DNA of 43,409 nucleotides, taken from the NCBI GenBank assembly GCA_938030175.1, contig CALHGQ010000149.1, positions 1 through 43,409 on the forward strand. The letters run 5' to 3'. The stretch comes from an uncultured bacterium (GTDB lineage: Bacteria; Planctomycetota; UBA1135; GCA-002686595). The position numbers and the translations under genes are program-made. Below the pieces are notes generated by a model. The model was not told the origin of the DNA, made no database searches, and saw nothing but the letters and a program-made list of their open reading frames with translations. Shown piece after piece: positions 28,997 to 31,156 of this stretch. Every line of letters starts with the position of its first letter. Positions within the stretch are counted from its first letter, which is position 1.

Positions 28997-31156
28997 ATGA
29001 AGCTAGTCCTTCACGCAACTGCTGTCGCGCTCATGGCCCTCGTGGCCGCGCCAGAGTCCTTCGCCCAGGGCTGACCGCCCACGCCGCCGTCGTCTGGTTC
29101 AGACGACCCCCCGCCCCCGCCCCCCGGTGGCGGGTCCTCTGGTGGATCAGCTGGGCCGCCTTCGTCCGCTTCGCCCATCACCCCCGGCTCGGTCGCCCCC
29201 GGACCCTCCTCACCCGGCCCATCCAGCCCCGGCCCCGTGCCGCGCCCCGCCCCAGGCCCGGCTGCGTCGCCGCCTCCGGTGGCCGCGGGCCCGGTCCCTG
29301 CGCCGACGAGCGCACCGATCAGCCACGGATCAGCGGATCAAGATCTGCTCCACTGGTCGCACTGGTGGTTCCTGGAGAGCGCGCGCTACATGGACCTGCG
29401 AACGCACGTTCAAGGCCCCCCCGCCACGGACGGTCGCTCGATCGCGACGAACGCCCCCATGGCGCCGTCGCGCGACTACGTCTACCGGGAAGTCATGCCG
29501 CGGCTCCTCGACGTCCTGGAGAACGAGCGTTCCGACGACATTGTCGCCTCGGCTCTCATCGCCGCAGGACGCCTTACGGGCACGAATGACCCCCTTTACG
29601 GGCGAATCCTCACCGCCACGCGCACGCGCCTTCGCAGCGCCAACGCGCGCGTCTTCGAGTCGGCCTTGCTGGGGCTCGGGCTCATCGGCACCGAGGCGGC
29701 CTGCGAGGATCTGCTCGCGATCGTCGCTGACACGGCCAAGGGACGCCAGCTGCGGGGCAGCACCACCCTGCGCACGCGTACCCGTGCCTACGCGGGCCAC
29801 GCTCTTGGACTCGCCGCCAACCAGATGAACGACCTCGCGCTCGAGCAGCGCATCGCCGTCGGGCTCATCGAGGTCCTCGAGAATGAGTCTCACGGGCAGT
29901 ACGACCTGCCGGTGTCGCTGGTCTCATCGCTTGGACTCGTCAAACTCAGCGCGAAGCTCCAGGTTCCCCCCAGCTCCGTGCGTGCGTCGGCTGCGGCGGA
30001 CCACGTGCTGTCTGCGAGCACCCTGAGCCGGTACCTTGAGCGCTGGGCTGGCATCAACGTCGCCAAGGTCCGTCGCGGTGAGAAGTCGAGCCTCGCGTCT
30101 CGACCGAGGGCCAAGGTGCAGAGCCATGCGGTCATCGCACTCGCGCGCGCCGCGCGGCATGGCGAAGAGTCCACCCGAGAAGCGGCTACCCAGCAGATCT
30201 TGGCCCTGGCCAAGGACCCTTCGACCCATGTGTACGTCCGCACGTCGGCGGCCATCGCGCTGGGCGAAATCGCACGCGCTGGTTCCGCCAAGGTGGACCG
30301 CGCCACTCGCAAGTTCCTACTTGAGGCCATGAAAGAGGGGCAGCCCCTCGAGCGGCGCTTCTCCAGGATCGCACTCGCCAGCGTGGCAGGACGCCCCGGT
30401 GCCGGTGAAGAGCCCTACGAGGGCTGGCGCCCGGTCCTGAGCGCCCTGACCCACTCGATCGTGAAGTCACGTTCGAGCGACATGGCTTGGAGCGCACTCT
30501 CGATCGGGATCCTCGAAGACTCGCTCGCGAAGGCTGGCATCCACACGGGGCGGAGCGCGTCCGATGCGCTTCGATCGCTGGCCCAAAAGCGTCGGAGCGA
30601 CGATGACTCGGCCGCGCTCGCGCTGGGTCTCGCGCTTTCGACCCGAAACCTCGACAACACGGACTCGTTCGGAGCCGGCGTCATCCGTGAGTTCGATGCG
30701 ACGACGACGCCGTACCTGCGCGGCCACGTCTCCGTGGCCCTGGGCCTGATGGACTTCAAGCCGTCGATCCCAAGGCTCAAGGAAGAGCTCATGGAGGCGA
30801 GCAACCAGCCCATTCGTCTTTGGAGTGCCGCGGTGGGCCTCGTCCTGATGGGCGAACCCGTGGGAGCCCAGCTCGTTGAGGCACTGCGCAACGCGAAGTC
30901 CTCGCAGTCGCGGATCGCCGTGACGGCCGCGCTCGGCCAAGCGGGGACGTTCCGCGCCGTGATGCCGCTCTTGGACCTGGCCGGGGAGACGCAGTCCCCG
31001 AGTCCGCTGCGAGCATCGGCCATCGACGCGCTCGGCGCTGTCTGCGATCTTTCGCGCCTCCCCTGGCGCGACCCGATCGCCCACGCCTTGCCGTACTACG
31101 CGGCGACGTCGACGCTGAACAGCAACGGCGCAGGCGTCCTCGAGCGTCCCTGGTAG
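28997..31156 (+). CDS. Secreted HEAT-repeat-like protein with Pro/Gly/Ser-rich linker; reading frame interrupted by one in-frame TGA at 29072-29074
   Basis: SD-like aaggA (28986-28990) 6 nt before ATG 28997; MKLVLHATAVALMALVAAPESFAQG* then in-frame PPTPPSSGSDDPPPPPPGGGSSGGSAGPPSS... continuous with the 29237-31156 ORF (same frame, no other stop). C-terminal body has HEAT/ARM-like units (VRTSAAIALGEIARAG, RIAVTAALGQAGTFRAVMPLLDLA). Confidence 0.75.
29089..29107 (+). other. Perfect 8-bp hairpin with GTT loop downstream of the in-frame TGA
   Basis: gtcgtctg (29089-29096) gtt (29097-29099) cagacgac (29100-29107); 22 nt separate the TGA from the loop. Confidence 0.8.

What the first reader, a model, noticed from the sequence alone, without database searches (positions are those of the whole stretch)
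28997..29240. In-frame UGA directly after a signal peptide, with a SECIS-like hairpin 22 nt downstream
Seen: an SD-preceded ATG (28997) opens MKLVLHATAVALMALVAAPESFAQG, then TGA (29072-29074), then the same frame stays open through a Pro/Gly/Ser-rich linker into the 639-aa HEAT-like ORF to 31156. A perfect 8-bp stem with 3-nt GTT loop (29089-29107) begins 14 nt after the TGA, with 22 nt between TGA and loop. Known: bacterial SECIS elements are stem-loops immediately downstream of UGA with a short loop beginning with G-rich positions, at about this spacing; UGA followed by C is also a leaky stop context. Inference: candidates are (a) selenocysteine insertion next to the signal cleavage site, (b) programmed or basal UGA readthrough making export of the HEAT protein conditional, (c) a recent nonsense mutation, (d) a sequencing/assembly error. 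The location in a low-complexity linker argues against a catalytic Sec, so (b)-(d) deserve equal weight.
Basis: partly seen in the sequence, partly recalled or inferred. Interest (0 to 1): 0.8.

Follow-up and report, generated by a model that had tools for sequence, protein, structure and literature searches.

The report
Exported repeat protein with N-terminal selenocysteine
A planctomycete gene that looks broken by a stop codon just after its export signal is best explained as a selenoprotein: the stop is read as selenocysteine, the same thing recurs in at least 20 related bacteria (sometimes as two selenocysteines in a row), and databases have cut these proteins short.

Summary
The genome has selA, selB, selD and tRNA-Sec, and its selD is itself UGA-encoded with the same G[GUU]C hairpin loop. 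The UGA sits where related secreted HEAT proteins have Cys (window AQG-U-PPTPP; homologues Q-C-PP-x-PP). I found 20 HEAT genes in 20 genomes of 9 genera with UGA at this one site: U (3), CU (9, e.g. AQGCUGP) or UU (8, e.g. FQUUGG). Nearly all have a hairpin with a GU-containing loop 18-22 nt downstream: score >=6 in 18 of these 20 genes against 0 of 45 His-type paralogue N-termini; Cys homologues tested have none. Stems covary. The main CU/UU clade carries an internal CxCGxC motif; 21 of 22 long CxCGxC database homologues lack a signal peptide (gene callers stopped at UGA), and the one complete protein has Cys. No such family is among the 119 prokaryotic selenoprotein families in a 2026 review. 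Most likely function (inferred): an extracytoplasmic selenothiol on a disordered ~90-residue tether, on a HEAT solenoid; redox is favoured, metal binding is the main rival. Se incorporation itself is not shown experimentally.

The parts
28986..28990 (+). Shine-Dalgarno AAGGA, 6 nt before the ATG
   Evidence: sequence
28997..29065 (+). signal peptide MKLVLHATAVALMALVAAPESFA; cleavage after S-F-A inferred from the A-x-A-like motif, so the mature protein would start Q-G-U
   Evidence: no signal-peptide predictor was available
29072..29074 (+). in-frame UGA, read as selenocysteine (residue 26)
   Evidence: aligns with Cys in homologues and with UGA in other HEAT genes
29089..29107 (+). bacterial SECIS: 8-bp stem, loop GUU, 22 nt after UGA
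29075..29338 (+). Pro/Gly/Ser-rich linker (residues 27-114), predicted disordered
   Evidence: AlphaFold2 pLDDT <50 for residues 1-114
29339..31153 (+). HEAT-repeat solenoid (residues 115-719)
   Evidence: PF13646; AlphaFold2
29702..29704 (+). Cys236, present in the window clade (P0001, 3, 4, 6, 7) and absent from the other 15 rows: candidate resolving Cys (inference)
31154..31156 (+). true stop codon TAG

Best explanation
The gene at 28997-31156 encodes an exported 719-residue selenoprotein. Shown by sequence comparison: UGA 29072 occupies a conserved Cys/Sec site right after the signal peptide, is followed by a SECIS hairpin of the known bacterial type, and lies in a genome with a complete Sec system (selA, selB, selD, tRNA-Sec). 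Inferred mechanism: SelB-GTP-Sec-tRNASec binds the hairpin and inserts Sec at UGA; the protein is exported and cleaved after S-F-A, so that Sec is about residue 3 of the mature N-terminus, at the tip of a disordered ~90-residue Pro/Gly tether on a HEAT solenoid. There the selenol (Cys-Sec or Sec-Sec in relatives) acts as a mobile redox arm, exchanging with a thiol of the solenoid (CxCGxC in the CU/UU clade; perhaps Cys236 here) or of a partner. Estimated likelihood: Sec insertion about 0.93; redox role, given Sec, about 0.55. The confidence below is for the selenoprotein claim.
For: selA, tRNA-Sec TCA, selB 336 bits over cut-off, selD with its own internal TGA and a SECIS with the same G[GUU]C loop. 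Cys at the aligned site in own paralogue C654 and in P0010, P0013, P0015, P0019, P0012. 20 HEAT genes in 9 genera with UGA at this site; all 17 stop-containing hits listed have TGA only, at this site. Hairpin score >=6 in 19/21 Sec genes (selD included) vs 0/45 His-type controls, 0 in Cys homologues and low probability under synonymous recoding for most. Stem pairs 1-6 complementary in 10/10 sequences with 2-4 pair types each. 21/22 long CxCGxC homologues lack a signal peptide, Fisher p 4e-9. Disordered N-tether and ordered solenoid.
Against: No peptide, 75Se or reporter data. The hairpin alone is only a ~1% event. DNA upstream of the window's closest orthologues (P0003-P0007) was not available, so their UGA is inferred from truncated products. 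G014:C22 has a weak hairpin, and G022:C193 an imperfect one. The window protein lacks CxCGxC, so its resolving partner is a guess. No redox partner gene is conserved nearby.
Confidence: 0.9

Rival explanations
1. Sec is inserted, but the N-terminal Sec/Cys (or His in paralogues) binds a soft metal or metalloid (Cu, Hg, Ag, Se or As species) outside the cytoplasm instead of doing redox chemistry.
For: The same site holds His-Gly-Gly (HGGxYRGPGD) in non-Sec paralogues, and His, Cys and Sec are all metal ligands; CxCGxC resembles metal-binding Cys clusters.
Against: Disordered tether without a preformed site; GCUG is the redox tetrapeptide of thioredoxin reductase; no metal-transport genes conserved nearby.
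Confidence: 0.3
2. Programmed or basal UGA readthrough (not Sec) makes export of the HEAT protein conditional.
For: TGA followed by C in the window; a downstream stem-loop can aid readthrough.
Against: Full Sec machinery in the same genome; Cys (not Trp or another near-cognate residue) at the site in homologues; loop matches the SelB type and own selD; the CU/UU genes have TGAG, not TGAC.
Confidence: 0.03
3. Recent nonsense mutation of a Cys codon (TGC to TGA) in a dying gene.
For: Cys homologues have TGC; one base differs.
Against: The downstream frame is intact for 693 codons; close orthologues (68-85% identical) are also deposited without a signal peptide; the SECIS is present here and absent in Cys paralogues.
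Confidence: 0.02
4. Sequencing or assembly error in a metagenome bin.
For: The genome is an incomplete 728-contig assembly; no reads were available.
Against: An error would not come with a matching SECIS nor recur in 19 genes from other assemblies, including paired TGATGA.
Confidence: 0.01

Closest known systems
Bacterial SelB/SECIS selenoprotein genes (e.g. selD, fdhF)
   Same: In-frame UGA, sel genes, coding-region hairpin within the published model (loop 3-9 nt with G first or second, 4-16 bp, 16-37 nt from UGA; PMC13188914)
   Different: HEAT-repeat protein with Sec at the mature N-terminus after a signal peptide; in relatives two adjacent UGAs are followed by one hairpin
Mammalian thioredoxin reductase C-terminal GCUG
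   Same: Cys-Sec in the same tetrapeptide GCUG on a flexible arm, with a separate Cys cluster in the body (in the CU-type relatives)
   Different: N-terminal not C-terminal; no flavoprotein fold; no sequence homology; the window protein has a single U
Known CU-motif prokaryotic selenoproteins (MbdU, SaoC, HgcA, KCU-star, Csac_0668)
   Same: Cys-Sec dipeptide
   Different: Different folds and places in the protein; none listed as HEAT-repeat proteins (PMC13188914 Table 1)
His-type HEAT paralogues (HGGxYRGPGD) of the same order
   Same: Signal peptide, Pro/Gly linker, HEAT solenoid
   Different: No UGA, no SECIS; His after the signal peptide

Membership tests
Bacterial selenoprotein gene (SelB/SECIS-dependent) | Sec machinery (selA, selB, selC, selD) in the genome | tested here: met
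Bacterial selenoprotein gene (SelB/SECIS-dependent) | In-frame UGA with homology continuing across it | tested here: met
Bacterial selenoprotein gene (SelB/SECIS-dependent) | Hairpin fits the bSECIS model (loop 3-9 nt, G in first two, stem 4-16 bp, 16-37 nt, MFE <= -7.5) | tested here: met
   8 bp, loop GUU, 22 nt, -10.4 kcal/mol; model from PMC13188914
Bacterial selenoprotein gene (SelB/SECIS-dependent) | Cys homologues at the UGA position | tested here: met
Bacterial selenoprotein gene (SelB/SECIS-dependent) | UGA-containing homologues in other species | tested here: met
   19 further HEAT genes at the same site; for the closest orthologues only truncated proteins were seen
Bacterial selenoprotein gene (SelB/SECIS-dependent) | Selenium found in the protein | not testable with these tools
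   needs 75Se labelling or MS
Any of the 119 listed prokaryotic selenoprotein families | Named family or domain match | tested here: not met
   only PF13646 HEAT_2, no NCBIfam hit; no HEAT family in PMC13188914 Table 1
Thioredoxin reductase-type CU redox enzyme | Flavoprotein disulfide-reductase fold | tested here: not met
   all-helical HEAT solenoid
Lipoprotein (SPase II) with Sec in place of the lipobox Cys | Lipobox L-[AST]-[GA]-C at the cleavage site | tested here: not met
   residues before U/C are AQG, AFQ, QAQ or SGQ, not a lipobox (judged by eye)

The most novel reading that the evidence does not exclude
A new selenoprotein family built on exported HEAT scaffolds in a planctomycete family, in which the mature N-terminus is a Sec, Cys-Sec or Sec-Sec warhead on a disordered tether, with a single SECIS decoding two adjacent UGA codons in the UU forms; a mirror image of the thioredoxin-reductase C-terminal GCUG arm working outside the cytoplasm.
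Probability: 0.5. Interest if true: 0.85.

Novelty: new variant of a known kind. Interest (0 to 1): 0.75.

Why it matters
It adds a selenoprotein family with a scaffold not in the current list and a Sec in an unusual place: the mature N-terminus of a secreted repeat protein, in what looks like a linker. The UU members pose a directly testable question: can one bacterial SECIS decode two adjacent UGAs? At least 20 database proteins of this family appear wrongly truncated and so look cytoplasmic. It also warns that a stop after a signal peptide in a low-complexity stretch is not by itself a pseudogene.

Tried and rejected
One search used the wrong Rfam accession (RF00053, mir-7) and says nothing. 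Pfam SelB wing-2 gave no hit, but the full SelB model did, so SelB is not missing. Both genome-contig scans for window orthologues found nothing or only the truncated same-genus contig. The class-wide search returned the same 154 genomes as the order. A search with the N-terminus alone found no other protein family sharing it. Conserved neighbours of CU/UU genes are housekeeping (ThiC, acyl-ACP synthetase-like, D-Ala ligase), giving no functional lead. Foldseek gave generic HEAT/ARM solenoids only. MAFFT put window and selD one base out of register with the other hairpins, so the stems were compared ungapped. One listed HEAT hit has a TAA (G001:C900): a contig-end fragment, translated, where the TAA lies inside the fragment and not at this site.

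Full report
Observation. The features described are at the stated coordinates: SD, ATG 28997, signal peptide, TGA 29072-29074, hairpin 29089-29107, open frame to TAG 31154-31156. [quoted passage not shown] PMC13188914): loop GUU, 8 bp, 22 nt, -10.4 kcal/mol. Alone it is a ~1% event, so the case must rest on comparison.

Machinery. The genome holding the window (G000, 7.17 Mb, 82% complete, 728 contigs) has selA (E 7e-118), a tRNA-Sec with anticodon TCA (70.9 bits), selB (336 bits, over cut-off) and selD (328 bits) with an internal TGA, i.e. a Sec-type SelD. Its SECIS is CACGCAG-GTT-CTGCGTG at 33 nt: the same loop and closing pair as the window hairpin. 35 of 37 genomes of the family have SelB over the cut-off. 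Ten of 18 window ORFs end in TGA, so TGA is not reassigned.

Sec/Cys pairs. The protein belongs to a large family of secreted HEAT proteins in this planctomycete order. Its 48%-identical paralogue in the same genome (C654) reads MLQ-C-PPAPPPPPPPPGGGG where the window reads AQG-U-PPTPP...PPPPPPGGG. Metagenomic homologues with an intact signal peptide have LQCPPGPP (P0010), AQCPPGPP (P0013), MQCPPAPP (P0015), AQCPPAPP (P0019) and GACPPAP (P0012). The window's closest orthologues, 68-85% identical (P0003-P0007), are deposited without a signal peptide, as a gene caller stopping at UGA would leave them. In the tree the window plus four of these truncated proteins form a supported clade beside the Cys proteins.

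Recurrence. Reading upstream of other HEAT hits showed UGA at the same place, usually as Cys-Sec or Sec-Sec followed by Gly: FQUUG (G001, G002, G003, G004, G007, G008), QGUUGGG (G030, G079), QGCUGP (G021, G025, G073, G074, G075, G076, G077), QCUGP (G022), RRCUGP (G026), GQUGP (G036), FGUPG (G014). With the window that is 20 genes, 9 genera, 28 UGA codons. In the order-wide profile search all 17 listed hits containing stops have TGA only, and at this site. A Cys homologue, G009:C214, reads AQGSCEIP.

SECIS. The Sec genes have a hairpin whose loop carries GU (GGU, GUU, AGUU; in G025 the best loop is GUG), 18-22 nt after the last UGA. With one scoring rule, 19 of 21 Sec genes (selD included) score >=6 against 0 of 45 His-type paralogue N-termini from related genomes, and the three Cys homologues tested score 0. 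Random synonymous recoding reaches the observed score with probability 0 to 0.0125 in 12 of 15 genes; the exceptions are G036 (0.09), G014 (0.12) and G022 (0.21), where G022 has an imperfect stem with one mismatch. Across ten stems including selD, the six pairs next to the loop are complementary in all, with two to four pair types each, e.g. CGCCCCC/GGGGGCG in G002 and CGCTCCC/GGGAGCG in G004.

CxCGxC. The main CU/UU clade carries CxCGxC in an ordered loop of the solenoid. Of 22 long CxCGxC-bearing database homologues 21 have no signal peptide, and the one that has it carries Cys; of 46 other homologues 36 have a signal peptide (Fisher p 4e-9). So the motif and UGA travel together, which suggests that the N-terminal Cys-Sec works with CxCGxC. 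The window protein lacks CxCGxC, but its Cys236 occurs only in its own clade.

Mechanism. AlphaFold2 gives a confident HEAT solenoid (115-719) behind a disordered 1-114. I infer a mobile extracytoplasmic selenothiol arm. GCUG equals the thioredoxin-reductase C-terminal tetrapeptide (own knowledge), by resemblance only. Because paralogues have His at this place, metal binding remains a real rival. Neither was tested.

Novelty. Table 1 of PMC13188914 lists 119 prokaryotic families or subfamilies; none is a HEAT protein. NCBIfam has no model matching it. Paper searches found no planctomycete HEAT selenoprotein and no bacterial protein with adjacent Sec-Sec, within an open-access library only.

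Limits. One incomplete metagenome assembly for the window, no reads, no protein evidence, signal peptides judged by eye or by a crude hydrophobicity rule, homologues' upstream DNA partly unavailable. The 20 genes are not 20 independent events: the six g1 UU genes and the five g55 CU genes are each close relatives.

Noticed in passing
L012-L031 and other loci of the order: Most paralogues share a post-signal-peptide motif HGGxYRGPGDTVPPGGGG of unknown function; the mature N-terminus would start at or near His, where Sec/Cys sits in the Sec group.
   Followed up: partly
database proteins P0038-P0061 and P0003-P0007: More than 20 deposited HEAT proteins appear truncated because UGA was taken as stop; they would be wrongly called non-secreted.
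   Followed up: partly
L097-L102, L104, L107 (UU genes): Two adjacent UGA codons followed by a single SECIS-like hairpin, 18-21 nt after the second UGA.
   Followed up: partly
G000:C195:5252-6199 (L095): selD of this genome is itself UGA-encoded (SAGUAAKMP).
   Followed up: yes
G036:C349:17966-30760 and G032:C37: Tandem arrays of five or more HEAT paralogues in a row.
   Followed up: no
window 27315-28757 and 31181-32890: Sulfatase gene upstream and a carboxypeptidase-regulatory-domain gene downstream, same strand; not seen as a unit next to other Sec-HEAT genes.
   Followed up: partly
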